Below the pieces are notes generated by a model, which was given only the letters and a program-made list of their open reading frames with translations, had not been told where the DNA came from and did no database searches. Shown piece after piece: positions 24,535 to 39,306 of a stretch of DNA of 60,865 nucleotides (positions are counted from its first letter, which is position 1; each line of letters begins with the position of its first letter). Origin of the DNA: Pseudoxanthomonas sp. GTDB taxonomy: Bacteria > Pseudomonadota > Gammaproteobacteria > Xanthomonadales > Xanthomonadaceae. A program made the position numbers and the translations under genes. Location of the stretch: assembly GCA_017745195.1 (NCBI GenBank), contig JAGHZW010000246.1:1-60865 (forward strand), written 5' to 3'.

Positions 24535-24590
24535 CGCGTTTCCTCCCTTGCGGCGCCCGCGGGCACCTTGGTCTTCGATCACTTCGATCA

Positions 24591-26288
24591 TCAATAGGTC
24601 GCCAGCTTCACCCGCAGCAGCTGCGGGGCGCTGGAGAAGTTGAGCCCATAGTCGGTCTGGTCGCCGTTCCAGCGGCGATGGAACACCCATTCGCCGTTCT
24701 CGTAGGTGCCTTCGTCGACATATTCGTAGATCTGCCGGTCGGCCACGGCCGGATCTGTCGCCACCAGGTTGACCCGCGCGTGCATGCCGGTGACCAGGAA
24801 TTCGTCCGGCCCCAGCTGCACGACCAGCGCACCACCGACCGGCTCGGGATTGCCCGGCGGTTGGCCCTGGAACCAGAACTGCGGCACGCCGTAGGTCACC
24901 ACCGCCTTCCAGCGCTCGTCGATCGGCAGGGTCTGCACCGGCTGGCCCGGCTGTTCGGCGGTACCGTGCACCTTGCCCTCGAAGCTGGCCTTGGCGACCA
25001 GCCGCGCCGCCGGCGACACCAGACGGTAGTTCAGCGCGAACGGCTCCAGCGTCTCCGGGTTCATCACCTTGGCGCCGAGCGGGTAGTTCGAATACTTCGA
25101 ATAGTCGATGCCGAACGGTGACCAGCCGATCGCCTGCTCGCCCAGCGCAGCGAAGAAGTAGCGCGCGTACTCGCCGCGGTTGCCGGTCTCGGCGACGAAC
25201 AGCGGGTTGTCCGGGCGCGAATAGCGCTCAAGCACCGTGGTGTAGTGGGTGTACTCCGGCATGTAGATGTCCGGCGCCAGCAGGTCGATGTGCGGCGCGG
25301 CGGCCTTGTACACGTCGAGCACGTTGTCGGTCGGGCCGCCGCTGGCGTACTGGCCAGGCTGGCCGGGGTTGAACGGCCCGCGCAGCGCGGCGTTGATGTA
25401 CATCGGCAGCGGGTAGGCCTCCTTGCCGGCAGCCGCGACCTGGTCGATGTAATGGGCGATGTGCCAGGCGTGGAAGAACTCGTCCGCATCGGCGCCGAAC
25501 GCCTCGCGCCAGGTCCCGGGCGACTTGCCCAGCTTCTGCAGCAGCGCATCCGGCACCGGCCCGTCGAACACCTTCTGCGCCATCGGCGAGAAGTCGCGCA
25601 CGCCACCGTAGGTGCCCGGCTCGTTCTCCGGCTGGACCATGATCACGGTGCGCTGCGGGTCGGCGGCCTTCAGGTGCTTCATCAGTTCGACGAAGGCCTT
25701 GCGGTCGGCCTGCAGCGTCGCCTCGCCCAGCGGCGACAGCGAATTGAGCGTGCGTCCGTCGGCGGTGATCACCCGCGGGAAGCGCTCGTTGTCCAGCTTC
25801 ACCCACTTGGGCGCGTAGTTCGGGCCGTTGTTCTTCCAGGTCGCGAACCAGAGCAGGACCAGGCGCACGTCGTGCTCGCGCGCCTGCGCCAGCAGCGTGT
25901 CGACGAAGGAGAAGTCGAACCTGCCCTCCTCCGCTTCGATCTGCTCCCAGGACACCGGCACCATCACCGTGTTCGGCTTGACCACCTCGATCGCCGGCCA
26001 CACGTTCTCCAGTGCCGCGGGCCAGTTGCTGGAGTTGTTGACCTGCGCACCGAGGACCAGGAACGGCTCGCCGTCGACCAGCAGCGCGTGGCGACCGTCC
26101 TTGCTGACGATCTGCGGGATCGGAGCCTCGGCCGCCGCGGTTTTCGCATCCGCCGCGCCGGCGCTACCCGCCTTGGTCGCCGGTTCGCCATCGGCATGCC
26201 CGCTGTTGCCGCAGGCCGCCAGCAGGCACGCCAGCAGGAACGCCAGCCATGCAGTGGCGACGACGCGCCAGCCCATTCCGTTTTTCAT
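24591..26288 (-). CDS. GH35 beta-galactosidase, lipoprotein
   Basis: 565-residue GH35 enzyme predicted to remove beta-1,2-galactose from xyloglucan side chains. Catalytic glutamates are in VQPENEPGTYG (acid/base, about 221) and LFVAETGNRG (nucleophile, about 367); the barrel has VMVPVSWEQIEAEEGRFDFS. Start MKNGMGWRVV gives a lipoprotein signal with lipobox LLAACG (Cys26), placing the enzyme on a membrane surface facing the periplasm. Two in-frame ATGs upstream (26327 and 26333, the latter 4 nt after the preceding stop) would bury the lipobox at Cys39-41; they remain possible. The released galactose feeds the dgo genes nearby. Confidence 0.88.
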   Translation of the reverse strand: MKNGMGWRVVATAWLAFLLACLLAACGNSGHADGEPATKAGSAGAADAKTAAAEAPIPQIVSKDGRHALLVDGEPFLVLGAQVNNSSNWPAALENVWPAIEVVKPNTVMVPVSWEQIEAEEGRFDFSFVDTLLAQAREHDVRLVLLWFATWKNNGPNYAPKWVKLDNERFPRVITADGRTLNSLSPLGEATLQADRKAFVELMKHLKAADPQRTVIMVQPENEPGTYGGVRDFSPMAQKVFDGPVPDALLQKLGKSPGTWREAFGADADEFFHAWHIAHYIDQVAAAGKEAYPLPMYINAALRGPFNPGQPGQYASGGPTDNVLDVYKAAAPHIDLLAPDIYMPEYTHYTTVLERYSRPDNPLFVAETGNRGEYARYFFAALGEQAIGWSPFGIDYSKYSNYPLGAKVMNPETLEPFALNYRLVSPAARLVAKASFEGKVHGTAEQPGQPVQTLPIDERWKAVVTYGVPQFWFQGQPPGNPEPVGGALVVQLGPDEFLVTGMHARVNLVATDPAVADRQIYEYVDEGTYENGEWVFHRRWNGDQTDYGLNFSSAPQLLRVKLATY

Positions 26289-26337
26289 GCCCTGCACCCC
26301 ACGGCCTGCAAACTCCGTATTCGACATTCGCATCTGT

Positions 26338-28284
26338 TCACCACGCCCGCGTGCGGAACGGCGAGGCCGGCAGGCCGTCGGCCCCGACCAGGTCGGCCTG
26401 GGCCGGGTCATCGCTCCACGCGTAACGCGCCGCTTCCGGGCTGGCCACCGCCTTGCTGCGCAGGACCACCGTGTCGCCGACGATGCGCGCCTGCGCCGGA
26501 TGGAAACGGTTGTCCGCGCCGGCCACTTCGAAGCCGCGCGGCGCGGAGCCGCCCGCGCGCGTGGCCAATACCCCCTGCAACGCGTCGAAGCGCAGCACCA
26601 GCTCGCCGCCTTTCGTTTCGACCGTACGGAACAGCGGCCCGCGATGGACCAGGTCCTGCTCGCCATACGCCACGTGCCGCGCCGCCAGCGCCAGGCGATG
26701 GCCGACGACGTGCTTGTCGCGCGGATGGATGTCGTGGCTGTTGCCGGCATCGATCAGTACCGCCTGGCCGGTGGCCGGCAGCGCCAGCGCCGCCGACTGC
26801 GACTCGCGCAGGGTCGCCCACGGGCTGTCGAGCACGATGCCGGCTGCATCACGGCGATCATCGCCGGAGCCGAACGCGGCCAGCTGCGCCCACAGGAACG
26901 GCAGCGCCGGCGCCTGCCACTGCGCGCGCCAGCCCTCGATCATCGCCCTGAACTGGTCGCGGTAGCGATACGCGCCCGCCGGCGTGGCATTGGCCTCGCC
27001 CTGGTACCAGATCACGCCGGCCAGCGCGTACGGCTGCAGCGGATGGATCATCGCGTTGAACAGCACGGTATCGACCTGGTTCTTGTCGTCCGCGGTGGAA
27101 ACGGTCACTGCCGCGGTACGGAAGCGCCAGTCGCCCGCGAGCGGACGCCGCCGTCCGCCGGCCGGCTCGATGAAGACCTCCGCCGGCGCACCGGCGATGC
27201 CGCCACCGCCGCCGGTGTCCTCGACCCGCACCGCGACGGTATTGAGACCGGCACGCAGCGCAGAAGCCGGCACCTTGTACACCCGTGGCACGTCGTAGCC
27301 GTTGCTGGTCGCACCCACGCGCTGGCCGTTGACCCAGGCCACGTCGCTGTCGTCGATCCGGCCCAGCCCCAGCACCGCACCGGCGGCCGCCTCGCTCGCG
27401 CTCAGCTCGAAGCGGGTGCGATACCAGGCTGTGCCATTCATGCCGGCATAGCCTTGCGCTTCCCAGGTCGACGGCACCGTGATCGCGGCCCAGCCACTGT
27501 CGTCCAGCTGCGGCGAGGCGAACGCATCGGAGGCCGCGTCGACCGGCGTCCAGTCGGCCAGGCGGGCACGGGTCGCCGCTTCCACGCGTTCGTCGGCGGC
27601 GCGGCGCGTGGCCATTTTTGCTTCCAGTGCGGCCGCGTCCAGGCCGAGCATCGACGCGTCCATCCACGCCTCGATCGAGCTGCCGCCCCAGGTGCTGTCG
27701 ATGATGCCCACCGGTACGCCGAGCACCTGGCGCAGCTCGCGGGCAAAGGCGTAGCCGGCGGCGGAAAACTCGCCGACGTTCTGCGCCGTCGCCGGCAGCC
27801 AGTGTCCGCCGGCCAGCTGCGCCTGCGGCGTGGCCGCCCACGACTTGGGCACCTTGAAGTGGCGCAGCGACGTATCGCTGGCGCCGGCGATGTCTTCCTT
27901 GCCGTGCAGCGTGGTCGCCACCGGCCATTCCATGTTCGACTGGCCCGAGGCCAACCAGACCTCGCCGACCAGCACATCGCCGATGCGCTTTTCCTCGTTG
28001 CCGGCATGCACCAGCAGCGTATACGGCCCGCCTGCGGGATGCGCCGGCAGCTGCAGCGACCAGCGCCCGTCCGCGCCTGCCACGGCTTGCGCCTTGCGGC
28101 CGTCGAACTCGACCTGCACGCGCGCACCCGGCGCCGCCTGGCCCCACACCGGCAGCGCGTGGTCACGCTGCAGCACGGCGCCGTCGGTGAACAGCAGTGG
28201 CAGTTCGAGTTTCGCGTCCGCCGCGATCGCCGGCAGCGCCAGCGCGAGCCAGGCCAGGGTGCCGACGACGATCCGATGCTTCAT
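26338..28284 (-). CDS. CE20-type (sialate O-acetylesterase-like) carbohydrate acetylesterase
   Basis: 648-residue exported SGNH esterase. Sec signal at 1-21 (LALALPAIAA). Catalytic Ser116 is in ASGQSNMEW; the Asp/His of the triad are in DAGNSHDIHPRDKHVVGH (about 515-525). A jelly-roll module is inserted mid-protein (DDSGWAAITVPSTWEA ... WYRTRFEL, about 265-400), the architecture reported for the CE20 xyloglucan acetylesterase of Xanthomonas. Role: remove O-acetyl groups from xyloglucan galactose before GH35 acts. ATG overlaps the GH74 stop (ATGA). Confidence 0.87.
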   Translation of the reverse strand: MKHRIVVGTLAWLALALPAIAADAKLELPLLFTDGAVLQRDHALPVWGQAAPGARVQVEFDGRKAQAVAGADGRWSLQLPAHPAGGPYTLLVHAGNEEKRIGDVLVGEVWLASGQSNMEWPVATTLHGKEDIAGASDTSLRHFKVPKSWAATPQAQLAGGHWLPATAQNVGEFSAAGYAFARELRQVLGVPVGIIDSTWGGSSIEAWMDASMLGLDAAALEAKMATRRAADERVEAATRARLADWTPVDAASDAFASPQLDDSGWAAITVPSTWEAQGYAGMNGTAWYRTRFELSASEAAAGAVLGLGRIDDSDVAWVNGQRVGATSNGYDVPRVYKVPASALRAGLNTVAVRVEDTGGGGGIAGAPAEVFIEPAGGRRRPLAGDWRFRTAAVTVSTADDKNQVDTVLFNAMIHPLQPYALAGVIWYQGEANATPAGAYRYRDQFRAMIEGWRAQWQAPALPFLWAQLAAFGSGDDRRDAAGIVLDSPWATLRESQSAALALPATGQAVLIDAGNSHDIHPRDKHVVGHRLALAARHVAYGEQDLVHRGPLFRTVETKGGELVLRFDALQGVLATRAGGSAPRGFEVAGADNRFHPAQARIVGDTVVLRSKAVASPEAARYAWSDDPAQADLVGADGLPASPFRTRAW

Positions 28285-30521
28285 GGGCGTGGTTCTCCAT
28301 AGATGATGCCGCGGCCGCCGGTGGCCAGGTAGACGCGCCCGTGCACGCACGCATCGCCGGTCATCATGCGCAGACTACCGAAGCGGTGCCGCGCATCGTC
28401 GATCCGCAGCCAGTGGCCGCCCTCGTCGTCGGAGCGGAACAGGCCGTCGACCCCATCCACCACGCCTGAGACGAACAGCGCCGGCACGTTGCGTCCGGGC
28501 GCCGGCGCACCGAGCCCTGCGGCGACGGCGCTGTCCACGCCCGGCAGGCGCACCGTCTTGCCATCGACCCAGCGGAGCAGGCCGTTGCCGGCGGCGGCAA
28601 AATAGACCACGCCAGCCTTCAATGGTGATGCGAGCAGGTCGCCATGGAAGCGACCGTCGATGGCCGTGACGCTGCCTGCTTCCACGAACGACGCACCGCC
28701 ATCGCGACTGGTGAACAGCTGGCCGTTCGACGGGTCGAAGGCGTACCAGCGTGCGGCTTCGAAGCGGTCGGCCGCGACCGTGGCGCCGACCGGCAGGCCG
28801 CGCACCGGCTGCCAGTGGTCGCCAAGATCGGTGGTCAGCCAGTGGGGCGCGCCGCCGGCCTGCCAGATCACATGCGCGCCATCGGCCGATACGGCAACGC
28901 TGACCCGGCCGTCGCCTTCACCCGCGGGCGGTTCGCGGGTGAACTGGGTCCAGCTGCTGCCGCCGTCGCCCGACCAGGCCACGCGCACGATCGCCGGATC
29001 GGGATGGTGCAGGTGGCCGCTGCGGACCAGGAATTCCGGTTTGCGCCCGGCATAGTCCAGGCTCTCGGTGTTGCTGTAGCGCGGCGGCTTCGCGAACTGG
29101 GTCGTGGTGCTGCGCAGGTCGTCGTGGCGGAAGCCGTCGATGTCGCCGAGCCCGCTGACCAGCGGTGCACCCCGTGGCGGGCTGAGCAGGTCCAGCGGCA
29201 CGGTCTCGTCCAGCCCGGCATCGTCGAACATCCAGTGCACGGTGCCGCCGCGATCGACCGCGGTCATGTCGCGCGAGGCCCACACGCCGTAGCCGGTGAC
29301 GAACAGCACCCGGTCCGGATCGTGCGGGTCGATCTCGATGTCGGCCATCCAGTGCGGCGTGGCCTGCGCGGTCCACGGCGAGGCGGAATGGTCGAACTCC
29401 GAGTGTTCGAGCACCGGCGTCCAGCTGCGGCCGCCGTCGATACTGCGGTACACCTCGTCGCGCGGCTTCCAGCGACGGAAGGTGGTCGCCACGATCACGT
29501 CCGGGTTGGATGCATCCACCGCCACCGCGCCCCAGCCGAAGCCGTCGCCTTCCAGGTCGGTGGACTGCGGCGCCGGGGTGATCTCGGTCCACGCGCCACG
29601 TGCCGGCGAATATCGCCACACGGCCCCATTGCTCATCGTGTCCGGGCCCGGCTCGTCGCCGTAGCTGAGCAGGAAGTCGCCGCGCGCGTCGCGGACCATG
29701 TGGCTCGGCCGCAACCCGATGGGCTGGCCCGGCACCGCCTGCCAGCTCTTTCCCGCGTCGGTCGAACGGAACAGGCCGCCTTCGCGACTGGAGACGCCGG
29801 CATAGACCACTGGCGTCGGCGCGCCGGCCTGGCCACTGGCCGGATCGAACGCAACGAAAACGATGCCGATCGACTGCTTGCGATTGGCGTGATTGCTGGC
29901 AGTGGCCGATTCAGAGGTGGCCAATGCCGGGAAGTCCTCGACCCGGGCCCAATGCGCGCCGCGGTCGTCGCTGCGCCACAGGCCATGCGCGCGCGAGCCG
30001 AGGAACAGCACGCGGCCATCGTTCGGGTCCACCATCAGCCGCTCGCCGTTGCCGCGCGACAGCTCGTTGCCACCGAGCTTGAACGGCAGGTCGGCGCGCT
30101 CGAAGCTGGCACCGCGATCGGAGGAGCGCAGGATCGCGCCATTGCCGGCGCGCTCATGGGTATAGGTACCGGCGGCCAGGTAGACACGCTGCGGATCGGA
30201 CGGATCCAGCGCCAGGCTCTCGATGCCGGTCAGGTTGGCGTCGTCGCGGCCGATCCAGTCGGTCAGCGGGATCCAGCGCCGCGCCGCGGCGTCCCAGCGG
30301 TAGGCACCACCGACATCGGTGCGCGCGTAGGCCAGGCCACGCTCGGCGGGATGGAACACCAGGCCGGTGACGAAACCGCCGCCACCGATGGCGACATTGC
30401 GCCATTCGTAGGGCGCATCGGCGATGGCCGCCATGGCCGGTATCGCCGCGATCGATCCGGCCAGCAGGCACGCGATGCGGAGGAAAGCGAGCCGGGCGAA
30501 GCCGGGATGGAACGTGTGCAT
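28281..30521 (-). CDS. GH74 endo-xyloglucanase
   Basis: 746-residue secreted enzyme that cuts the xyloglucan backbone. Sec signal at 1-31 (AIPAMA). The two seven-bladed propellers are built of BNR/Asp-box-like repeats (for example SSDRGASFERADL, STDAGKSWQAVPG, SIDGGRSWTPVLE, SRDGGASFVEAG). The catalytic aspartates fit Asp69 in ARTDVGGAYRW and Asp460 in SGLGDIDGFRH. Start at 30521 has GGGAG 8 nt upstream. First enzyme after the TonB receptor, separated from it by a 166-nt gap with a 13-bp hairpin. Confidence 0.9.
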   Translation of the reverse strand: MHTFHPGFARLAFLRIACLLAGSIAAIPAMAAIADAPYEWRNVAIGGGGFVTGLVFHPAERGLAYARTDVGGAYRWDAAARRWIPLTDWIGRDDANLTGIESLALDPSDPQRVYLAAGTYTHERAGNGAILRSSDRGASFERADLPFKLGGNELSRGNGERLMVDPNDGRVLFLGSRAHGLWRSDDRGAHWARVEDFPALATSESATASNHANRKQSIGIVFVAFDPASGQAGAPTPVVYAGVSSREGGLFRSTDAGKSWQAVPGQPIGLRPSHMVRDARGDFLLSYGDEPGPDTMSNGAVWRYSPARGAWTEITPAPQSTDLEGDGFGWGAVAVDASNPDVIVATTFRRWKPRDEVYRSIDGGRSWTPVLEHSEFDHSASPWTAQATPHWMADIEIDPHDPDRVLFVTGYGVWASRDMTAVDRGGTVHWMFDDAGLDETVPLDLLSPPRGAPLVSGLGDIDGFRHDDLRSTTTQFAKPPRYSNTESLDYAGRKPEFLVRSGHLHHPDPAIVRVAWSGDGGSSWTQFTREPPAGEGDGRVSVAVSADGAHVIWQAGGAPHWLTTDLGDHWQPVRGLPVGATVAADRFEAARWYAFDPSNGQLFTSRDGGASFVEAGSVTAIDGRFHGDLLASPLKAGVVYFAAAGNGLLRWVDGKTVRLPGVDSAVAAGLGAPAPGRNVPALFVSGVVDGVDGLFRSDDEGGHWLRIDDARHRFGSLRMMTGDACVHGRVYLATGGRGIIYGEPRP

Positions 30522-30649
30522 CGGGGTTCTCCCGTCGGGATGGAGAGCCGATGCGCCATGCGTGGAGCACATTCTCGGCAGCAGACACGGGGGTTCTGGC
30601 AACACCCGGCGTCTTCCGTTCTCCGGTGGGCGAGGAACAGCAAAACTCC

Positions 30650-30687: not shown

Positions 30688-33657
30688 TCAGAACGTCAGG
30701 CGGATGGTCGCCGCGTAACGGCGGTCGTTCACGTACCACGAGGTGACGCGGCTGCCCGCATCGTTCTGGTCCATGATCGTGCGCTGCTCGGCGTTGTTGA
30801 GGTTGTTCATCTCCAGGCCGAGCTGCACATGGTCGCTCACGCGGTAGAAGACCGAGCCGTCCAGCTGGCCATAGTCGTCGCTGTACACCGGCAGCTTCCA
30901 GACGATGTTGTTGTTGTTGCCGTTGTAGCCGTTCGGCCCGACCGACAGCAGGTACTTGCTGCGCCAGTTGTAGGCCAGGCGGACCTGCCACGGACCCTTC
31001 TCGTAGAACGCGGCGAGGTTGAACGCATTCTTCGACAGGCCGTCGGCCGGCAGGTCATCGAAGGTGGAACCGTCGGTATCGACCGGCTGCACGTCGATGT
31101 TGTTCGGCACCTCGGTGGAGCTGTCGATGTAGGTGTAGTTGGCCGACATGCCGAAGCCGTCGAAGGGCTCCGGCAGGAAGTCGAAGAACTGGTTCCAGCC
31201 AAGTTCCACGCCGCGGATGTTCGCCGTGCCCACGTTCACCGGACGGCTGATCAGGTAGTCGTACATGTTGCCGTCCGCACCCGGGAACGGCACCACCTGG
31301 GTCTGGCGGCGGAAGTAGTCCTTGATGTCCTTGTAGAACAGGTTCACCCAGGCCATGCCACCGTGGTCCGGATCGAAGTACCACTCCGTCGACAGGTCGA
31401 ACTGGTTGGCCTTCATCGGCTCCAGGTACGGGTTGTCGTAGGAGCTGCCGGTCAGGTCCATGTCGCTGATCGGCGGGTAGCTGCCGTCGGTCGGCGGATC
31501 GATGCCGGGCTTCATGCTGGCATTCAGCACCTGGTAGGCCTGCATGTCACCGAAGTTGGGGCGTGCGATGGCTTTGGACGCGGCGAAACGGAAGATCACG
31601 TTCGTCATCGCCTCCCAGCGCATGTTGAGGCTGGGCAGCACGTCGGTGTAGGAGTTCTCGGCGGAAATCGGCTCGGATTCGCCGCTGCCCAGGAACGGTG
31701 CGTACGCCTGGTTCGGGAAGACCACGTAGCCCTTGGCCGAGTTCTCGGTGCGGACCACGCGCACGCCGACGTTGCCGTCGAACGCCACGTCGTCCAGGCC
31801 GAAGTTCAGCATCACGTAGCCGCCGTTGGTGGACTCTTCCTGCACGTTGGTGTGCTGCGGGCCCGGGAGCATCGGGGTGTACGGCGTGAAGCCACCGGGA
31901 TTGATGTAGAACTGCTCGGCGGCCGCGTGGATGGCCTGGTAGCTGCCCGGATAGCCGAGCGCCGTGGCCAGGACCGGCGCGTAGAAACCGCCCGGCGCAT
32001 TGGCGTCCCCGCGATAGAAGTTCTTGAACTCGTTGAGATGGGTGAGACTGGAGTTGACCTCGCTGCTCAGGTCCAGCCCCGGCAGCGGCACGCCGCCGGG
32101 CAACTGCCACCACTGCATCCAGGGCTGGATCACCGCCGCCCAGTTGTAGCCGGTATCGATGCTGGTCGCATCGCGCCGGGTGGTGCGCACGCCGCCCTTG
32201 ATCGAGCGGAAGAAGCCGCTGTCGAAGCTGTACTTGATGTCGGCGCGCCAGGTCTTCTGCTCGGCCTCGTTGTCGTCCTGGTGGTCCATCGTGAACCCCC
32301 AGTAGTAGTTGTCGGGGTTCGAGGTGAACTGCTGGTCCACGCTGATCGACGGCAGGCCCTTGGTCAGGTCGACGTCGATGTACGGCATCAGCAGGCCCAG
32401 GGCCACCGTGGAGTCCAGGCTCTTGGTGTCAGCCTTGATGTACTGCACGTCGGTCGACAGCTCGACCTTGTCGTTGACCGCCCACTTCAGACCGGCGGAG
32501 AAATCGGTGGTCTTGGAGTTGCGGTTCGACGCACGGATGTCCGTGCCCATCGGCACGCCACCGGGCTGGATGATGCGGCCGGAGCGGAATACGTTGCCAT
32601 CCAGCTCGTACGGCTGGGTGGTATCGAGCGCGACCTGGGTCGGGTCGTTGTCGACGAAGATCGCGTCTTCGTACCAGAGCTCCTTGTACTTGCTCTGGAA
32701 GGCGGTGGCGACAACCTCGATGTCGTCATTGGGCTGCCACTGCATGGCCAGGTAGGCGCCGCTGCGCTTGCGGTCGTAGTTCAGCGTGCGCCAGTCGGCG
32801 CCGCGCGGCACCCACACATCGTCGCCCGTGCCGTCGCCGTTCACATCGGAATTGCTGTTGTTGAAGAACGGGCGGACGAACATGCCGTCCGTGCGCGTCG
32901 CCAGATCGGAGCGGGCCAGGTCGACCAGAATGCCGAAATTCCCGGCGCCGGTGTTCCAGCGGTTGCTGTAGAGAACCGATGCCGAAGGGCTGGTCTTTTC
33001 GGCGAAATCACCGTTGTTGACGCTGAAGCTGGCCGCCAGCTTTTCACCCTCGAAATCGAACGGCAGGCGCGTGCGCAGGTCGACGGTGCCGCCCAGGCCG
33101 CCTTCGATCATCTCCGCAGTCTGGTTCTTGTACACATCCACGCCGGCCATCAACTCCGACGGCACGTCCTGGAAGCTCAGGCCGCGGCCACCGGAGGCGG
33201 AGAAGCTGTCGCGACCATTCAGCTCGGAACGGACCTGGGTCAGGCCGCGGACCTGCACGCCGTTGCCCTCGGCCGAGAAGTGTTCCGGATCGCCCACCGC
33301 CAGGAAGCGGTCGATGGTCACGCCGGGAATACGCGAGAGGGTTTCCGTGATGCTGCGGTCGGGCAGCGCGCCGATGTCCTGCGCGGTGACCGAGTCGACG
33401 AAGGTGCTGGCGTCGCGCTTGATGTCCTGCGCGCGCATCACGCTGGCGCGGATGCCCTGGACCTGAACGGCCTCCAGGTCGGTCGCATCGGTCTTGGCGG
33501 CGTCATCGGCGGTCGCGTCATCGGCCGTCGCGCTCTGTTCTTGGGCATGGAGCACACCGGCCGGCAGGGCCAGGGCGATGCCCAGGGCCAGGGCCGAACG
33601 GACCAGATGGACAGGCAGGCGCGACACGGCGGCGCCGCGGAGCGGGTATTTCGGCAT
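30688..33657 (-). CDS. TonB-dependent receptor 1 (xyloglucan oligosaccharide uptake)
   Basis: 989-residue outer-membrane receptor. Signal peptide 1-38 (ALGIALALPAGVLHAQ), a TonB-box-like DLEAVQVQG, plug domain with GALPDRSITETLSRIPGV and GLGGTVDLRTRLPF, and a beta-barrel ending in Phe (ATIRLTF). The plug motif VMRAQDIKRDA is typical of the large carbohydrate-type receptors of xanthomonads. GGGAGGG precedes the ATG by 7 nt. As first gene of the GH74-CE20-GH35-GH31-GH95 operon it very probably imports GH74 products; the ligand is inferred from context. Confidence 0.9.
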   Translation of the reverse strand: MPKYPLRGAAVSRLPVHLVRSALALGIALALPAGVLHAQEQSATADDATADDAAKTDATDLEAVQVQGIRASVMRAQDIKRDASTFVDSVTAQDIGALPDRSITETLSRIPGVTIDRFLAVGDPEHFSAEGNGVQVRGLTQVRSELNGRDSFSASGGRGLSFQDVPSELMAGVDVYKNQTAEMIEGGLGGTVDLRTRLPFDFEGEKLAASFSVNNGDFAEKTSPSASVLYSNRWNTGAGNFGILVDLARSDLATRTDGMFVRPFFNNSNSDVNGDGTGDDVWVPRGADWRTLNYDRKRSGAYLAMQWQPNDDIEVVATAFQSKYKELWYEDAIFVDNDPTQVALDTTQPYELDGNVFRSGRIIQPGGVPMGTDIRASNRNSKTTDFSAGLKWAVNDKVELSTDVQYIKADTKSLDSTVALGLLMPYIDVDLTKGLPSISVDQQFTSNPDNYYWGFTMDHQDDNEAEQKTWRADIKYSFDSGFFRSIKGGVRTTRRDATSIDTGYNWAAVIQPWMQWWQLPGGVPLPGLDLSSEVNSSLTHLNEFKNFYRGDANAPGGFYAPVLATALGYPGSYQAIHAAAEQFYINPGGFTPYTPMLPGPQHTNVQEESTNGGYVMLNFGLDDVAFDGNVGVRVVRTENSAKGYVVFPNQAYAPFLGSGESEPISAENSYTDVLPSLNMRWEAMTNVIFRFAASKAIARPNFGDMQAYQVLNASMKPGIDPPTDGSYPPISDMDLTGSSYDNPYLEPMKANQFDLSTEWYFDPDHGGMAWVNLFYKDIKDYFRRQTQVVPFPGADGNMYDYLISRPVNVGTANIRGVELGWNQFFDFLPEPFDGFGMSANYTYIDSSTEVPNNIDVQPVDTDGSTFDDLPADGLSKNAFNLAAFYEKGPWQVRLAYNWRSKYLLSVGPNGYNGNNNNIVWKLPVYSDDYGQLDGSVFYRVSDHVQLGLEMNNLNNAEQRTIMDQNDAGSRVTSWYVNDRRYAATIRLTF

Positions 33658-33842
33658 CACTGTTCCCTCCCAGGACACTGACTTCGAATCTTCGAGTTTT
33701 GGGCCGGCAGGGCCGGCAATCCGGGGGTTCAGCGCGTCGATCCGCCAATGCACCAACGGCGTGCAATTGCAGGGCTGGAACCTCCCGGCCAGCACCTTAG
33801 GCGGGTTCAGTCATGGATTTCCAATAAAGAATTCGGGGCGAT

Positions 33843-33861
33843 CTATTCTTCGATGGAATAC
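33843..33861 (-). promoter_or_regulatory. LysR-type operator before TonB receptor 1
   Basis: CTATTC-TTCGATG-GAATAC, an inverted repeat with ATTC-N7-GAAT core (T-N11-A), about 190 nt before the receptor ATG. The same sequence with different spacer bases stands beside the lysR gene (38396-38414). Immediately next to it on the far side is a 7-nt direct repeat TGCCGGT-N7-TGCCGGT (33865-33885). The 323-nt gap 33658-33980 is notably AT-richer here and otherwise holds only the terminator of receptor 2. Confidence 0.6.
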
Positions 33862-33927
33862 ATATGCCGGTTATTTATTGCCGGTCGGGGCCGCTGCAGC
33901 ACCCCTCGACAGGGAGGGAAGAACCCC

Positions 33928-33958
33928 AAAAAAAGGCCCGCGCCAACCGGCGCGGGCC
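33928..33958 (-). terminator. Intrinsic terminator of TonB receptor 2 gene
   Basis: Minus strand: GGCCCGCGCC, loop GGTT, GGCGCGGGCC, then TTTTTTT. 10-bp perfect stem and a 7-nt U-run, 22 nt after the stop at 33981. It separates the two receptor transcription units. Confidence 0.92.
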
Positions 33959-33980
33959 CCGCTCGCCCGTTGGGGCGGTC

Positions 33981-36900
33981 TTACCAGCTGGCGCGGAGCA
34001 CGGCCGAATAACGGCGGTCGTTCTCGAACCAGGCGCGGGTATAGAGCGTGTCGTCGACGTAACCGTCGCGCAGGTACTTGCGCGGCCCGATCAGCAGCTT
34101 GGTGATGCTGTTGGTCAGGTTGTTCACCTGCAGGCCGATCTGGAAGTTCTTGTTGATGTTGTAGAAGAACGAGCCGTCCAGCTGGCCGTAATCGTCGTTC
34201 CAGGTCGGCAGGAAGGTGATCGCGTCGCTGCTGGTCAGCAGGTACTTCGAACGCCAGTTGTAGGCCAGTCGCGCCGACACCCGGCCGTGCTCGTAGATGC
34301 CGATGAGGTTGTACGAGTGCTCGGACAAGCCTTCCAGCGGCAGCTCGACCGCCCCTGCCCGCGCCGCGCTTCCGTTCGGCACCCCGACCGCGGCGTTGGT
34401 GCCGCCACTGCTGTCCACGTAGGTGTAGTTGGCCTGGACGCCGAAGCCCGGCAGGAAGTCGAAGAACTGCGAGTAGCCCACTTCGAAGCCGCGGATCTTG
34501 CCTTCGTCCAGGTTGTGCGGACGGGTGATCAGGTACTCGTCGCCGAAGATGACTTCGGTGGCCGCCTGGTTGGCGAAGTAGTCCTTCACGTTCTTGTAGA
34601 AGAACGTGGCGTACAGGCTGTTGGCCGGGCCGAAGTACCATTCCAGCGCGGTGTCGAACTGGGTGGCGCGCATCGGCTTCAGTTCCGGGTTGCCGCCATT
34701 GCCGGTGAAGGACAGGTCGGACGGACCGCACAGCTCGGTGCGCAGGCCGTCATCCAGGGCCTGCTGGCAGGCCGAGGCGCTGGCCGACAACGGCAGCCAT
34801 GCCTGCATCAGGCGGAACTCCGGCCGGGCGATCGCCTTGGATGCGGCGAAGCGCCACTGCAGGCCATGGTCGAAGCGCACGCGCAGGTTCAGGCTCGGCA
34901 GCACGTCGGTGTAGGTGCTCGAGGTGTCGGTGGTGAAGGCCTGGCCGGCGTACCTGTCCAGTACTTCCTGGGTCACCACGTCCGCCCAGCTCGACATGTC
35001 CGGCATCAGCCCGCCGCCGGCGGTATTGACGCTGGTCTTGACCACGCGCACGCCGATGTTGCCGTCCAGCGGATTGGCCATCGCGTCGTTGCCGAAGTAC
35101 AGCACGCCATAGCCGGCCTGGGTGCGCTCGTCCTGGGTGTTGGTGCTCTCCGGCCCGAAACCGATCGGGCTCCACTTCGCGCCCGGGAGCTGGCCCAGGG
35201 TGCCGGCGACGGTGGCGATGTCGACCATGCTGTCCTTCGGCGACCAGAAGCTGGTCGGCACGTCGGCCTTGCCGCCGAAGAAGTCCTTCATCGTGTACAG
35301 CGTCGACTCGCTGGAATAGAACTGGTCCAGCCAGGCCACGTTGGCGCGGGTCGGGTCAGCCGGGGTGCCGGTCAGCTTGTTCCAGTCGTCGCTGATGACG
35401 CCCCAGTTCCAGCCGGTGAACTGGTTGTCGTAGCTGCGGTCGGCCACGCGCGCACCGAAGCGCACGAACTGCAGCCAGTCGCTGTCCTGGAAGGTGTATT
35501 CCAGGTCGACGCGGCCGGCGCGCTCGATGCCCTCGCTTTCGCCGAGGTGGTCCATCGCCGACCGCCAGAAGTAGTTGCTCTGGTCGGTGACGGTGGCCGG
35601 ATCGCCGAGGGAGATCGTCGGGTACTTGCCGCTCAGGTCCAGGGTCATGTCCTGCAGCAGGGTCGAGGCATGCAACGAGAAATCGACGTTGCTGCTTTCG
35701 GCCTTCACGTACTGGAAGTCGCCGCGGACGATCAGGTTGTCGGTGATGAAGTGCTGGAAGCCCGACGACCAGTCGGTGGTCTTCGAGGTCTGTTCGTTGA
35801 GCCGGTTGCCACTGATGTACTGGATGCCGGAGTTGCCCTGGTAGACGCCGGGGTTGCCGTTGTCCAGGTCGGAGGGCTGGCCGAGCCAGCCACCCTGGCG
35901 CACCGTACCGCTGATGAAACGGCCGTTCTCGTCATAGGTGAACCGGGTGCCGGCCGCCGGAATCAGGTTGTTGCTCATGTCGGCCAGGCCGTCGGCGTAG
36001 ATCGGATTGAAGTGCGCCGGGTCGCCGTTCCAGTTGGGCTGGTTCTTCTGCGAAGCGCCGCCGAACTCCATGAAGTGCTCGCGCCAGGTCATGTCGTACT
36101 GCGAGGTGATGAACTGGGTATAGACCTCGGTGTTTTCGTTGGGCTTCCACTGCAGCGCGAACGCGCCGCCCTGGCGCTTGCGCTCGAAATCGGTACGCCG
36201 CCAGTTGGCGCCACCGGGCACGAACACCTGGTCCAGGTCGGTGCCGGCCAGCAACGCGTCGCGCTGGGATTCAGCCGACTGCCACGAACCCTGGTCCCAG
36301 TCGTAGGCCCAGTCGGTGTCCGAACCTTCGGTCTGCTCGGCCGGCTTACGGCCGCGGCGGTCGAACGGCATGATCTGGACGCCGTCCGAACGGGTCGCCA
36401 GCTCGGAATAGAACACGTTGGCCAGCGCGCCGACCTCGCCGATGCCGGTCTGCCAGCGGTCGCTGAACAGGAACGAGGCCGACGGCCTGGCGTCCTTGGC
36501 CTTGTCGCCGTAGTTGTAGTCGACGCTGCCGGCGATCTTGCGGCCGGGTTCGTCGAACGGCTTGCGCGTGCGCAGGTTGACCGTGCCGCCCAGTCCGCCT
36601 TCGATGATCTCGGCCGACGGGTTCTTGTACACGTCCACGCCGGCCATCAGTTCCGCCGACACTTCCTCGAAGCTGATGCCGCGTCCACCGGCGGCGCTGA
36701 AGATGTCGCGCCCGTTCAGTTCGCCACGCACGAAGGTCAGGCCGCGGATCATCACGCCGCTGCCTTCGGCGGAGAAGTGGTCGGTATCGTCACGCGCGGC
36801 GAAGCCGGTCACGGTCACGCCGCTGATGCGCTTGAGGGTCTCGGTAACCGAGCGGTCCGGCAGCGCGCCAATATCCTCGGCGGTGATCGAGTCGACGATC

Positions 36901-37154
36901 TGCGCGGCGTCGCGCTTGATGTCCTGGGCACGCATCACCGAGCCGCGGATGCCCTTGACCTCCACCGCCTGCAGCTCGGTGGCCGATGCTTCCTTCTTTT
37001 CCTTGTCGCCGGACGGCGTCTGGGCTTCCTGCGCCTGCAGCGCACCGGCGGACAAGGCCAGGGCGACGCCGAGGGCGAGCGTGGAATGGTTGAGATGGGT
37101 CGACAGGCGCGACATGGCGCTACGCCGGGCGGCGCAGTTCGTACGATTCGGCAT
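33981..37154 (-). CDS. TonB-dependent receptor 2
   Basis: 1057-residue outer-membrane receptor, related to receptor 1 especially in the plug (both carry VMRAQDIKRDA, GALPDRSxTETLxRI and GLGGTVxLRT). Signal peptide within 1-46 (ALGVALALSAGALQAQ), TonB-box-like ELQAVEVKG, barrel ending in an aromatic residue (VLRASW). GGGAGGGA precedes the ATG. Monocistronic by its own terminator and has its own palindromic operator upstream. Likely a second xyloglucan-oligosaccharide transporter with a different preference; ligand inferred. Confidence 0.9.
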   Translation of the reverse strand: MPNRTNCAARRSAMSRLSTHLNHSTLALGVALALSAGALQAQEAQTPSGDKEKKEASATELQAVEVKGIRGSVMRAQDIKRDAAQIVDSITAEDIGALPDRSVTETLKRISGVTVTGFAARDDTDHFSAEGSGVMIRGLTFVRGELNGRDIFSAAGGRGISFEEVSAELMAGVDVYKNPSAEIIEGGLGGTVNLRTRKPFDEPGRKIAGSVDYNYGDKAKDARPSASFLFSDRWQTGIGEVGALANVFYSELATRSDGVQIMPFDRRGRKPAEQTEGSDTDWAYDWDQGSWQSAESQRDALLAGTDLDQVFVPGGANWRRTDFERKRQGGAFALQWKPNENTEVYTQFITSQYDMTWREHFMEFGGASQKNQPNWNGDPAHFNPIYADGLADMSNNLIPAAGTRFTYDENGRFISGTVRQGGWLGQPSDLDNGNPGVYQGNSGIQYISGNRLNEQTSKTTDWSSGFQHFITDNLIVRGDFQYVKAESSNVDFSLHASTLLQDMTLDLSGKYPTISLGDPATVTDQSNYFWRSAMDHLGESEGIERAGRVDLEYTFQDSDWLQFVRFGARVADRSYDNQFTGWNWGVISDDWNKLTGTPADPTRANVAWLDQFYSSESTLYTMKDFFGGKADVPTSFWSPKDSMVDIATVAGTLGQLPGAKWSPIGFGPESTNTQDERTQAGYGVLYFGNDAMANPLDGNIGVRVVKTSVNTAGGGLMPDMSSWADVVTQEVLDRYAGQAFTTDTSSTYTDVLPSLNLRVRFDHGLQWRFAASKAIARPEFRLMQAWLPLSASASACQQALDDGLRTELCGPSDLSFTGNGGNPELKPMRATQFDTALEWYFGPANSLYATFFYKNVKDYFANQAATEVIFGDEYLITRPHNLDEGKIRGFEVGYSQFFDFLPGFGVQANYTYVDSSGGTNAAVGVPNGSAARAGAVELPLEGLSEHSYNLIGIYEHGRVSARLAYNWRSKYLLTSSDAITFLPTWNDDYGQLDGSFFYNINKNFQIGLQVNNLTNSITKLLIGPRKYLRDGYVDDTLYTRAWFENDRRYSAVLRASW

Positions 37155-37231
37155 CACAGATCCCTCCCCAGGGACTGAATGAAAACGCGGAAAACCAATC
37201 TGGTTCAGTGGATCGACGGCCTTTGGGCCAT

Positions 37232-37251
37232 CGATGGTAGCGCTACCATCG
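37232..37251 (-). promoter_or_regulatory. Perfect 20-bp palindrome, xyl-box/LacI-type operator
   Basis: CGATGGTAGCGCTACCATCG, fully self-complementary, about 78-97 nt before the receptor 2 ATG. The core TGGTAGCGCTACCA differs by one or two bases from the xyl-box TGGTAGCGCTAACA described for xylan/xylose regulation in Xanthomonas. No LacI-family gene is in this window, so the regulator would act in trans. Confidence 0.65.
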
Positions 37252-37350
37252 GCACGCGAAAAAAAAGTCCCCTGCCCCACAAGGACCTTGCGCGGATAAC
37301 AACGATACCGGGGTCACACGCTAGTGGCGGGGACTGCGCGTGACCAATGA

Positions 37351-37383
37351 AAAGAACGGATAGACCCACCGGGACCTATCCGT
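37351..37383 (-). terminator. Probable terminator of the lysR gene
   Basis: Minus strand ACGGATAG, inner CCC/GGG pairing, CTATCCGT, followed by TCTTTTC. 8-bp outer stem; the U-run is interrupted. It stands 12 nt after the lysR stop at 37395. Confidence 0.5.
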
Positions 37384-37394
37384 ACGAAGGCATA

Positions 37395-38378
37395 TCAGGC
37401 CGGCAAAGGCAGCGGCGCGTCGGCGACCGGATACAGCTGCCGCGCGATCGCCCGCAACGACTCCAGCATCCGCTGCGCCGCCGGCGAAAGCAGGTGGCCG
37501 CGACGGCGGACGATGCCGAACGACTCCATGCCCACGCCCAGTTCCAGCGGCAGCACCGCCAGCTGGCGGGCCTGCACGTAGGGAGCGACGGCTTCCGCGG
37601 GCAGTGCGGTGAGCAGGTCGCTGACCCGCAGCAGGTTGATCGTCACCGACAGCGAGGATGTCTCGATCGTATTGCGCGGGCCGACCAGGCCGTACTCGAG
37701 GAACATCGTCTCCATGCGCGCGCGCAGCACGCTGTCCGGCGGCGGCAGGATCCAGCCGTAGGGTGCCAGCTCGTCGTGGCGGACGGCCCCCCGTCCGTCC
37801 AGCGGATGGCCGGCGCGCACGATCACCGAGTGCGGCTCGTCGGCCAGCGGCTCGAATACCAGGTCCGCCCCGCCCTCCGGATCCATGATCCGGCCGATCA
37901 CCAGATCGAGCTGGCCGTCGAGCAGCTTGGCCACCAGTGGCCGGCTGTAGTCCATCTCGATCCGCACCAGGATGTCCGGATGCTCGCGCTTGACCGCGGC
38001 CACCGCCTGCGGGACCAGGTTGGTGCCGGGATTGACCACGGTGCCGATCGATGCCTGGCCCATGCGGCCGTCGCGCAGGGCGGCGATCTCCTCCTGGGCG
38101 CGGCCGATCTCCAGCAGCGCGGTCCGTGCGCGCCGGATCAGCACCTGCCCGTACCAGGTCGGTTCCACGCCGCGGGCATGGCGGTCGAACAGCGGTACGC
38201 CGAGCAGGCCCTCCATTTCGGCCAGCAGCTTGGAGGCGGCCGGCTGGGTCATGCGTGCGGCCTCGGCCGCGCGCAGCACCGACCCCTGCTCCTCCAGGTG
38301 CATCAGCAGCAACAGGTGTCGTGTCTTCAGGCGCGACGGGTTGAACCAGTGCGCGTTGGTGGTGGTTGGCTTACCCAT
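37395..38378 (-). CDS. LysR-family regulator, GbpR-like (galactose/xyloglucan control)
   Basis: 327-residue LysR-type transcriptional regulator. N-terminal winged HTH at about 16-75 (GSVLRAAEAARMTQPAASKLLAEME), followed by the periplasmic-binding-like effector domain (GTVVNPGTNLVPQAVAAV, VIGRIMDP). The sequence style (LKTRHLLLLMHLEEQGSVLRAA) resembles GbpR, which regulates sugar-binding genes in Azospirillum/Agrobacterium. Divergent from the galactonate genes, next to the xyloglucan receptors. The motif ATTC-N7-GAAT overlaps its own promoter and recurs before receptor 1, so autoregulation plus control of the operon is likely; effector unknown (a galactose derivative is plausible). Confidence 0.85.
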   Translation of the reverse strand: MGKPTTTNAHWFNPSRLKTRHLLLLMHLEEQGSVLRAAEAARMTQPAASKLLAEMEGLLGVPLFDRHARGVEPTWYGQVLIRRARTALLEIGRAQEEIAALRDGRMGQASIGTVVNPGTNLVPQAVAAVKREHPDILVRIEMDYSRPLVAKLLDGQLDLVIGRIMDPEGGADLVFEPLADEPHSVIVRAGHPLDGRGAVRHDELAPYGWILPPPDSVLRARMETMFLEYGLVGPRNTIETSSLSVTINLLRVSDLLTALPAEAVAPYVQARQLAVLPLELGVGMESFGIVRRRGHLLSPAAQRMLESLRAIARQLYPVADAPLPLPA

Positions 38379-38395
38379 TTCCCCTCCCAGAGAAA

Positions 38396-38441
38396 CTATT
38401 CAGGCCAGGAATAGATTACGGCGAAAATTTCATTTGCCCAA
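38396..38441 (-). promoter_or_regulatory. lysR promoter overlapped by LysR-type operator
   Basis: Minus strand: TTGGGC (38441-38436), 17-nt spacer, TAATCT (38418-38413). The perfect inverted repeat CTATTC-AGGCCAG-GAATAG (38396-38414) overlaps the -10 box and start region, the classic position for LysR autorepression, and is also upstream of the divergent dgo genes. A clear plus-strand promoter was not found in the remaining 38415-38658. Confidence 0.6.
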
Positions 38442-38658
38442 CATAACTGGGCAGGCGAGGCTACGGCCGCACGAATGACCCGGAACCTGCCAGGCCCACC
38501 TGCGCGGACGGAGTCTCACCGGCCTGGGAGGAGGGCCATGGCACGCTCCACGCGACGGACCGCGACCAAACTCGCACCTGGCCAATGGCCGCACTGCGCA
38601 CGCCCGGCGGACCGGAACGGCCTCGCAGGCGCCCGCCGCCCCCATGACGAGGCCCACC

Positions 38659-39306
38659 ATGAATGAGGTCGCCACCCACGGTGAGCGGACACCGCAGGCT
38701 CCGTTCCGCCTGCCCCTGATCGCGATCCTGCGCGGCATCGGCCCGGCCGAAGCCAGCGCGCACGTCGGTGCCCTGGTCGAGGAAGGCTACGACGCGATCG
38801 AGATCCCGCTGAACTCGCCCGACTGGGCGCAGAGCATCGGCACTGTCGCGCAGGAACATGGCGGACACGCATGGATCGGCGGCGGCACGGTGCTGCGCCC
38901 GGCCGAAGTGGACACCCTGCAGCACCTGGGCGCGCGCTTCGTGGTCACGCCCAACACCAATCCGGTCCTGATCCGCCACGCGGTGGCGGCCGGAATGCAG
39001 GTGGTCGCCGGCTTCGCCACGGCCAGCGAGGCCTTCGCCGCGCTCGATGCCGGCGCGCAGATGCTCAAGCTTTTCCCCGCGGCCACCTACGGACCGGGCC
39101 ACGTACGCGCCCTGCGCGCGGTGCTGCCGCCGGTGCCGCTGTTCGTGGTCGGCGGGATCACTCCGCTCACCCTCCCCGACTACCTGGCCGCCGGCAGCAC
39201 CGGCGCGGGCATCGGCGGCGAACTCTACCGTCCTGGCCAGCCGGTCGGGCGCACCCGCGCCCATGCGCGCGAATTCCGCCTCGCCCAGTCCGGCTCCCCT
39301 TGCTGA
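38659..39306 (+). CDS. dgoA: 2-dehydro-3-deoxy-6-phosphogalactonate (KDPGal) aldolase
   Basis: 215-residue class I aldolase splitting KDPGal into pyruvate and glyceraldehyde-3-P, last step of the De Ley-Doudoroff pathway. Motifs: LIAILRGI, catalytic Glu in [24 protein letters not shown] and the Schiff-base Lys in [13 protein letters not shown]. Start at 38659 is chosen for GAGG 6 nt upstream; an ATG 15 nt earlier lacks a ribosome site. First gene of dgoA-dgoD-lactonase-dgoK. Confidence 0.92.

What the first reader, a model, noticed from the sequence alone, without database searches (positions are those of the whole stretch)
33843..38414. Same LysR-type inverted repeat at lysR/dgo and before the GH74-operon receptor
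CTATTC-N7-GAATAC (33843-33861) and CTATTC-N7-GAATAG (38396-38414) share both half-sites and spacing but not the spacer bases, which argues for selection on a binding site. The second overlaps the -10 of lysR. This predicts a regulon in which one LysR protein controls its own gene, the galactonate operon and xyloglucan uptake/degradation.
Basis: partly seen in the sequence, partly recalled or inferred. Interest (0 to 1): 0.75.

Follow-up and report, generated by a model that had tools for sequence, protein, structure and literature searches.

The report
LysR switch linking galactose and xyloglucan
Two copies of the same DNA docking site, conserved across a bacterial family, suggest that one LysR-type switch turns on both the breakdown of galactose and the uptake of the plant polysaccharide xyloglucan that supplies it.

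Summary
CTATTC-N7-GAATAC (33843-33861) and CTATTC-N7-GAATAG (38396-38414) are the only two exact TATTC-N7-GAATA sites in the 3.6 Mb draft genome. Before lysR the palindrome is exact in 35 of 48 loci and within two mismatches in 45; the 35 have 31 different spacers. A matrix trained without the window's genus ranks the two sites first and second in the window, at 21 bits against 7.5 for the third.

Toward dgo and toward the receptors, the palindrome is followed at one fixed spacing (15 bases) by TTCATT[T/G]G: 99 hits at that spacing, 0-9 at twelve others. This composite, within 3 mismatches, is in 43 of 43 genomes searched with the LysR gene and, only at 3 mismatches, in 7 of 43 without. A further genus, 33 of its 35 genomes new to this pattern, has it within 2 mismatches in 34. 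The palindrome centre lies near -65 of the predicted starts.

The LysR is probably the orthologue of Xanthomonas GamR, a known galactose regulator. The operator, promoter plan, direct xyloglucan link and a galactan target in relatives are predictions I did not find in print. Binding is untested.

The parts
33843..33861 (-). Operator of the receptor/GH74 operon: GTATTC-N7-GAATAG read toward TBDR1; centre 33852, 195 bases before the TBDR1 start, about -65 from the predicted transcription start
33821..33834 (-). Conserved element GAATTCTTTATTGG at fixed distance after the operator; its TTGG read as part of a -35
33794..33799 (-). Predicted -10 of the TBDR1 operon, TAAGGT (CTAAGGT or CTATGCT type at about this place in relatives)
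   Evidence: my assignment, no mapped start
38396..38414 (+). Operator between lysR and dgo: CTATTC-N7-GAATAG; centre 38405, 27 bases before lysR and 239 before dgoA
38423..38436 (+). Conserved element GAAAATTTCATTTG at the same fixed distance, read toward dgo
38457..38462 (+). Possible dgo -10 (GAGGCT; A2 and T6 present) at the place equivalent to the TBDR1 -10; CATAAC at 38442-38447 is an alternative
   Evidence: weak, my assignment
38413..38418 (-). Predicted lysR -10 TAATCT; with TTGGGC at 38436-38441 as -35, the start would fall inside the operator
   Evidence: my assignment
37395..38378 (-). LysR-type regulator, probable orthologue of Xanthomonas GamR
   Evidence: name by gene position
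38644..39306 (+). dgoA, KDPG/KHG-type aldolase
   Evidence: PF01081
39321..40472 (+). dgoD, galactonate dehydratase type (enolase superfamily); substrate inferred from the neighbours
   Evidence: PF13378, PF02746
40486..41406 (+). SMP-30/gluconolactonase-type lactonase
   Evidence: PF08450
41403..42302 (+). dgoK, 2-keto-3-deoxy-galactonokinase
   Evidence: PF05035
30688..33657 (-). TBDR1, TonB-dependent receptor, first gene of the presumed xyloglucan operon
   Evidence: TIGR01782
19227..30605 (-). Rest of the presumed operon: GH74-like (28281-30605; BNR/sortilin matches and gene position, no GH74 model hit), SASA esterase (26338-28350, CE20 by position), DUF5597/beta-galactosidase-like (24591-26750), GH31 (21688-24690), GH95 (19227-21647)
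   Evidence: CE20, GH35 and GH74 names by comparison with the set
33981..37160 (-). TBDR2, second receptor; no composite site within 4 mismatches here, LacI-type palindrome upstream instead

Best explanation
A LysR-type regulator (GamR orthologue) binds TATTC-N7-GAATA as its recognition site. At dgo and at the TBDR1-GH74-esterase-GH35-GH31-GH95 operon the site sits about 65 bases upstream of the predicted start. The regulator would also contact the A/T-rich TTCATT[T/G]G element over the -35 region and, on binding a galactose-pathway molecule, recruit RNA polymerase. At 38396-38414 the same bound site covers the start region of lysR and represses it. So the signal that galactose is being catabolised raises uptake and breakdown of the polysaccharide that yields galactose. 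Shown here: the sites, their conservation, the fixed spacing and the dependence on presence of the LysR gene. Inferred: binding, activation, autorepression and the effector.
For: Only two exact sites in the own genome. Before lysR: exact in 35 of 48 loci, within 1 mismatch in 41, within 2 in 45; of gaps 3-15 only gap 7 stands out, and the gap-12 signal reuses the same right half. A matrix from 34 lysR-side sites outside the window's GTDB genus (30 distinct; several of these loci still bear the name Pseudoxanthomonas) ranks the two window sites 1 and 2. In 48 loci, up to about 10 kb either way, the 61 sites with at most 1 mismatch are 41 before lysR, 17 before a receptor or GH74 and 3 inside dgoD. 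Composite within 3 mismatches in 64 loci: dgo side in 61, before a receptor or hydrolase/esterase gene in 62, none elsewhere in those stretches. 43 of 43 LysR+ genomes against 7 of 43 LysR-. In genus g17, composite within 2 mismatches in 34 of 35 genomes, with 1 hit for the backwards control: a TTCATTTG (dgo-type) site in 33, all exact, and a TTCATTGG (receptor-type) site in 34, exact in 13; of 28 new loci opened, 27 hold the LysR (71-75%) and one is a contig piece with the receptor. The palindrome holds the T-N11-A of LysR sites, the gene is divergent from dgo, and the protein has HTH_1 and LysR_substrate domains. In X. citri xyloglucan oligosaccharides induce XAC1768-1777, and XAC1767 is called GamR, a galactose metabolism regulator.
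Against: No binding, expression or start-site data from this organism. Receptor-side sites are weaker than dgo-side sites in the first 64 loci: exact composite in 1 locus, within 1 mismatch in 12, within 2 in 42, within 3 in 62. 5 of 29 LysR+ genomes have no exact palindrome, and 9 of 34 exact palindromes lie neither before lysR nor before these receptors and are unexplained. One orthologue with full upstream sequence has no palindrome within 2 mismatches (L137) and no dgo-side composite within 4. In g17, one genome (81% complete) has no composite, and G105, a fragmented assembly in which one search found no LysR, still has a receptor-type site. The dgo -10 is ambiguous. Of 2000 column-permuted matrices, 43 also put 33843 in the top two. 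The core alone also occurs before a receptor beside a paralogous LysR.
Confidence: 0.85

Rival explanations
1. The palindrome is the site of another regulator encoded elsewhere, and the neighbouring LysR acts on other DNA.
For: No binding data; nine exact sites in relatives lie away from the LysR cluster.
Against: Site presence follows presence of this LysR gene. Location just upstream of the regulator gene and T-N11-A symmetry are typical of LysR sites (established knowledge). Some relatives show a different palindrome at the same place before a paralogous LysR gene.
Confidence: 0.08
2. The receptor promoter is held by the shared TTCATTGG plus CTATGCT promoter core, and the palindrome there is a relic or weak site; control comes mainly from other regulators such as a LacI-type xylose repressor.
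For: The core occurs without this palindrome at another receptor of the same genome. The palindrome is degenerate at receptors in most of the first 64 loci. TBDR2 carries a perfect LacI-type palindrome at 37235-37248.
Against: In 47 of 48 loci (window plus 47 named) palindrome and core keep the exact 15-base spacing before a receptor or hydrolase/esterase gene within 3 mismatches; 99 hits fall at that spacing against 0-9 at others; in genus g17 the receptor-type site is exact in 13 of 35 genomes. Relic sites would have decayed.
Confidence: 0.065
3. Chance: two similar palindromes in a 61 kb window.
For: With 2 mismatches allowed the window search gives 5 matches and 5 of 100 shuffles reach that number.
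Against: All conservation evidence; exact sites are expected far less than once per genome, since the backwards control gives 4 in 29 genomes.
Confidence: 0.005

Closest known systems
GamR (LysR-type galactose metabolism regulator) of Xanthomonas oryzae pv. oryzae; XAC1767 in X. citri
   Same: Position beside the two TonB-dependent transporters of the xyloglucan cluster (locus numbers). Orthologues of 73-75% identity in 19 of 20 genomes of genus g7, which holds Xanthomonas sp. F10, and of 71-75% in 27 of 28 opened loci of genus g17 (unnamed). Galactose metabolism as theme.
   Different: The original paper (Rashid 2016) is not held and was not seen; I do not know whether it defines an operator. 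Papers seen report binding upstream of hrpG/hrpX in X. oryzae (passages); that region was not examined here. No locus named X. oryzae or X. citri was compared.
XyGUL, xyloglucan utilisation locus of Xanthomonas (Vieira 2021, PMC8245568)
   Same: Same set: two receptors, GH74, esterase (CE20), GH35, GH31, GH95; induced by xyloglucan oligosaccharides in X. citri.
   Different: The passages and the one section that I read do not give this operator or a direct LysR control of the cluster.
PcaQ/GbpR-type LysR regulators
   Same: Best NCBIfam model is PcaQ over the full length (212.6 bits). GbpR as a galactose/arabinose-sensing LysR is recalled, not from a call.
   Different: Below the PcaQ cut-off (303.8 bits), so not PcaQ; operators of those proteins were not compared.

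Membership tests
LysR-type transcriptional regulator (LTTR) with its operator | N-terminal LysR helix-turn-helix and C-terminal substrate-binding domain | tested here: met
   PF00126 and PF03466 above cut-off
LysR-type transcriptional regulator (LTTR) with its operator | Dyad-symmetric recognition site with T-N11-A | tested here: met
   ATTC-N7-GAAT in both sites
LysR-type transcriptional regulator (LTTR) with its operator | Divergent from a target operon, site in the shared intergenic region | tested here: met
   lysR minus, dgo plus, site between them; kept in relatives
LysR-type transcriptional regulator (LTTR) with its operator | Recognition site near -65 and activation site near -35 of the target promoter | tested here: inconclusive
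   Geometry fits predicted -10s; transcription starts not mapped
LysR-type transcriptional regulator (LTTR) with its operator | Protein binds the site; effector changes activity | not testable with these tools
   needs EMSA or footprinting
GamR orthologue | LysR gene beside the receptors of the xyloglucan cluster, as XAC1767 | tested here: met
   Window; full order printed for relatives (e.g. L075, L076); in Xanthomonas-named L121, L123, L130, L136, L142 one search shows dgo on one side and a receptor on the other; XAC numbers
GamR orthologue | Direct sequence comparison with GamR of X. oryzae | not tested
   That sequence was not fetched by name
GamR orthologue | Required for galactose use | not testable with these tools
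   genetics needed
Xyloglucan utilisation locus (XyGUL) | Receptors plus GH74, CE20, GH35, GH31 and GH95 | tested here: met
   GH31, GH95 and both receptors by model; GH74, CE20 and GH35 by partial matches (BNR/sortilin, SASA, DUF5597 with a sub-cut-off GH42 hit) and position

The most novel reading that the evidence does not exclude
Polysaccharide uptake here is wired by monosaccharide content. A pair of paralogous LysR regulators, one for galactose and one for arabinose, read different palindromes (TATTC-N7-GAATA and ATAC-N8-GTAT) placed at about the same distance from a shared promoter core. Each switches on the outer-membrane receptor systems whose polymer yields its sugar (xyloglucan, and galactan with GH53 in relatives; arabinan with arabinofuranosidase and GH43) together with the pathway for that sugar. 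The galactose half is well supported in the family; the arabinose half rests on few genomes of the window's genus.
Probability: 0.4. Interest if true: 0.65.

Novelty: new member of a known kind. Interest (0 to 1): 0.52.

Why it matters
It supplies a concrete operator and promoter plan for a regulator known by name in Xanthomonas, and predicts direct control of xyloglucan (and in relatives galactan) uptake by galactose catabolism. That would explain why receptor and hydrolase genes respond to the released sugar, and it makes the sugar-sensing step (which galactose-pathway molecule is sensed) directly testable. The paralogue offers a natural system for how LysR proteins change operator specificity while keeping one promoter core.

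Tried and rejected
Chance palindrome: rejected. Other spacings of the palindrome: of gaps 3-15 only gap 7 stands out before lysR; gap 12 (5 exact of 48) comes from a TATNC-like copy five bases upstream sharing the same right half. The core TTCATTKG as specific to this LysR by itself: rejected, since it also stands before a receptor beside the paralogous LysR with another palindrome. GH53/galactan target in this genome: rejected, no GH53 found in the draft assembly; it holds only for relatives. At three of the GH53 loci (L205, L206, L213) another, distant LysR gene (about 25% identity) lies just upstream of the receptor, so control of that target by GamR is not certain. The two 3-mismatch composite hits in the own genome outside the window lie inside likely coding frames and were set aside. 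GguR as a name: rejected, in the paper found GguR is a GntR-family regulator.

Limits of the genome sets. 'Without LysR' means no match at E 1e-60, where at most 11 candidates per genome were scored; 23 of the 43 such genomes were in the part of the miss list that one search did not print, and I took them as misses because they are not among its 29 matches. Of the 29 LysR+ genomes, two were not given: G014 (57% complete, broken frames) and G045 (LysR on a 4.3 kb contig); both are as L141 and L128. In one search the target is the nearest downstream homologue of a window gene, so an unrecognised gene in between would be missed (distances 542 and 580 in L125 and L140). Five loci have shorter flanks.
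Full report
Observation. The two palindromes are at the stated places. They share 11 of 12 half-site bases and the 7-base gap. In the window's own genome TATTC-N7-GAATA occurs exactly twice, both here. Titles of the closest named loci, with LysR identities of 82-93% in 12 of the 13 same-genus genomes that match and 77% in the other, place the window in or near Pseudoxanthomonas.

Genes. Minus strand from right to left: LysR 37395-38378, receptor TBDR2 33981-37160, receptor TBDR1 30688-33657, then GH74-like, SASA esterase, DUF5597/beta-galactosidase-like, GH31 and GH95. The GH74 label rests on BNR/sortilin matches and position, since Pfam and NCBIfam gave no GH74 hit. Plus strand from 38644: dgoA, dgoD, lactonase, dgoK, the De Ley-Doudoroff branch from galactonolactone to pyruvate and glyceraldehyde 3-phosphate (established pathway knowledge). 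Terminator-like hairpins lie at 33933-33960 and 37356-37383, bracketing TBDR2, so TBDR1 probably has its own promoter.

Conservation at lysR. Over the window plus the 47 named loci, the 300 bases before the helix-turn-helix codon hold the palindrome exactly in 35, within one mismatch in 41 and within two in 45 of 48. The three without are a contig edge (L131), a frame-broken genome with an 8-base gap (L141), and L137. The 35 exact sites have 31 different spacers, so the half-sites are held by selection rather than by recent descent.

Conservation at the receptors. In the same 48 loci, up to about 10 kb either way where the locus allows, the 61 palindromes at one mismatch or fewer are 41 before lysR, 17 before a receptor or GH74 (143-291 bases before receptors, 35 before GH74), and 3 inside dgoD. 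A palindromic matrix from 34 lysR-side sites outside the window's GTDB genus (30 distinct sequences; some of these species still bear the name Pseudoxanthomonas) scores the two window sites 21.4 and 21.2 bits; the third-best place in 60,865 bases scores 7.5. As a control, 43 of 2000 column-permuted matrices also placed 33843 in their top two.

A composite promoter. Reading from the palindrome toward dgo and toward the receptors, both sides show the same element at the same distance: the 19-base palindrome, 8 or 9 bases, then an A/T-rich run ending TTCATT[T/G]G, then a -10-like hexamer about 43-49 bases after the palindrome, clear on the receptor side and ambiguous on the dgo side. With TATTC-N7-GAATA-N15-TTCATTKG and up to 3 mismatches, 64 loci give the dgo side in 61, a site before a receptor or hydrolase/esterase gene in 62, and nothing else in those stretches; at 4 mismatches six other hits appear. 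Changing the 15-base spacing removes the signal: 99 hits at 15, and 0 to 9 at twelve other values, in 48 loci. Whole genomes: 43 of 43 LysR+ genomes given to one search have the composite, with 5 hits for the backwards control; of 43 LysR- genomes, 7 have one, all 8 hits at 3 mismatches, with 3 control hits.

A further test. Only two genomes of genus g17 (G032, G078) had been searched with this pattern before. Searched as a whole after the pattern was fixed, 34 of its 35 genomes match within 2 mismatches, with 1 control hit. A TTCATTTG (dgo-type) site is present in 33, all exact; a TTCATTGG (receptor-type) site in 34, exact in 13, one mismatch in 18, two in 3. Of the 28 new loci opened, 27 hold the LysR at 71-75% identity; the other (L239, from G105) is a contig piece with the receptor. 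In the six loci centred on a receptor-type site a receptor begins shortly downstream. The genome without a match is 81% complete. G105 is a genome in which one search found no LysR although it has a receptor-type site; its contig there is a fragment, so a gap in the assembly is possible.

Geometry. Taking starts 7 bases after the predicted -10s, the palindrome centre is at about -65 (TBDR1) and -64 (dgo), the usual LysR recognition position (established knowledge), with the TTCATT element over the -35. Starts are predicted, not mapped. The strict sigma-70 scan finds no promoter there, which fits activator dependence but does not prove it.

Regulator identity. In X. [quoted passage not shown] Two other papers say that GamR of X. 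oryzae binds the hrpG/hrpX region (passages of PMC7831014 and PMC6965072). Xyloglucan oligosaccharides induce XAC1768-1777 in X. citri (one section read). I did not see the GamR paper, and compared no locus named X. oryzae or X. citri. On novelty: nine literature searches and passages of seven papers (PMC8245568, PMC10714752, PMC5507952, PMC7831014, PMC13282271, PMC6965072, PMC7036363) showed no operator for this regulator. That is a limited search of an open-access library.

Further targets in relatives. A composite of one recognisable kind, at 3 mismatches, recurs away from the cluster in 12 of the 19 g7 genomes. Of twelve outlying places opened, six (L205, L206, L213 of g7; L207, L214 of g17; L211 of the window's genus) hold a receptor of 71-100% identity to that of L206, with a GH53 endo-galactanase relative beside it. 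Four others stand before GH43 (L208), GH43 plus GH42 (L209), GH39 (L210) and GH5 (L212) genes. The last two are the own-genome hits inside likely coding frames. In the window's genome no GH53 was found and no third site. At L205, L206 and L213 another LysR gene adjoins the locus, so this target is less certain.

A sister system. A paralogue (40% identity) on contig C209 stands beside a receptor, an arabinofuranosidase, a GH43, an aldose epimerase and a Gfo/Idh-type dehydrogenase. Its receptor promoter has the same core but the palindrome ATAC-N8-GTAT. In 16 genomes searched, this composite is exact in three (own and G008 before the receptor, G005 before the arabinofuranosidase) and stands before the paralogue's own gene at 2 mismatches in three (G007, G008, G015); the other hits were not examined, and six genomes have none.

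Mechanism. Most likely the LysR protein sits on the palindrome and, with ligand, also on the TTCATT element, activating dgo and the xyloglucan operon, while covering the lysR start. Steps shown: site, conservation, geometry, dependence on the gene. Steps inferred: binding, ligand, activation, autorepression.

Verdict. The kind of system is known (a LysR regulon, a known regulator by likely orthology); operator, promoter plan and extent are predictions that I did not find in print.

Noticed in passing
L218 (own contig C209) 1976-13183: LysR paralogue (40% identity) beside an arabinose-type locus: receptor, arabinofuranosidase, GH43, aldose epimerase, Gfo/Idh dehydrogenase. Its receptor promoter has the same core but palindrome ATAC-N8-GTAT.
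   Followed up: partly
37235-37248: Perfect LacI-type palindrome TGGTAGCGCTACCA before TBDR2; exact twice in the genome, a third with one mismatch. At two mismatches the backwards control has more hits (51) than the pattern (12). It resembles the XylR box recalled from Xanthomonas, suggesting xylose control of TBDR2 beside galactose control of TBDR1.
   Followed up: partly
L205, L206, L207, L211, L213, L214: Receptor plus GH53 galactanase loci preceded by the composite site; in L205, L206 and L213 a distant LysR gene lies just upstream.
   Followed up: partly
L084, L085, L086, L087, L088, L089, L090, L091, L092 (e.g. L085:8041, L088:8035): Nine exact TATTC-N7-GAATA sites in LysR+ relatives away from the cluster, five of the form TATTCC-N5-GGAATA. 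Eight are in genomes, which lists none of them, so they lack the core. L084 and L090 lie inside likely coding frames; near L087 and L088 no likely gene was found by a base-composition filter. Unexplained.
   Followed up: no
L208:4350-4389, L209:4478-4517, L210:4014-4053, L212:3976-4015: Composite-like sites before GH43, GH43 plus GH42, GH39, and GH5 with ricin-type lectin domain, each opened in a single genome; possible lineage-specific additions to the regulon.
   Followed up: no
33933-33960 and 37356-37383: Terminator-like hairpins with 12 pairs each after TBDR2 and after lysR, minus strand, separating the transcription units.
   Followed up: no
L068 / L141: Genome of Pseudoxanthomonas sp. 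NC8 has many frame breaks across the cluster and an 8-base spacer in the lysR operator, which looks like sequencing error.
   Followed up: no
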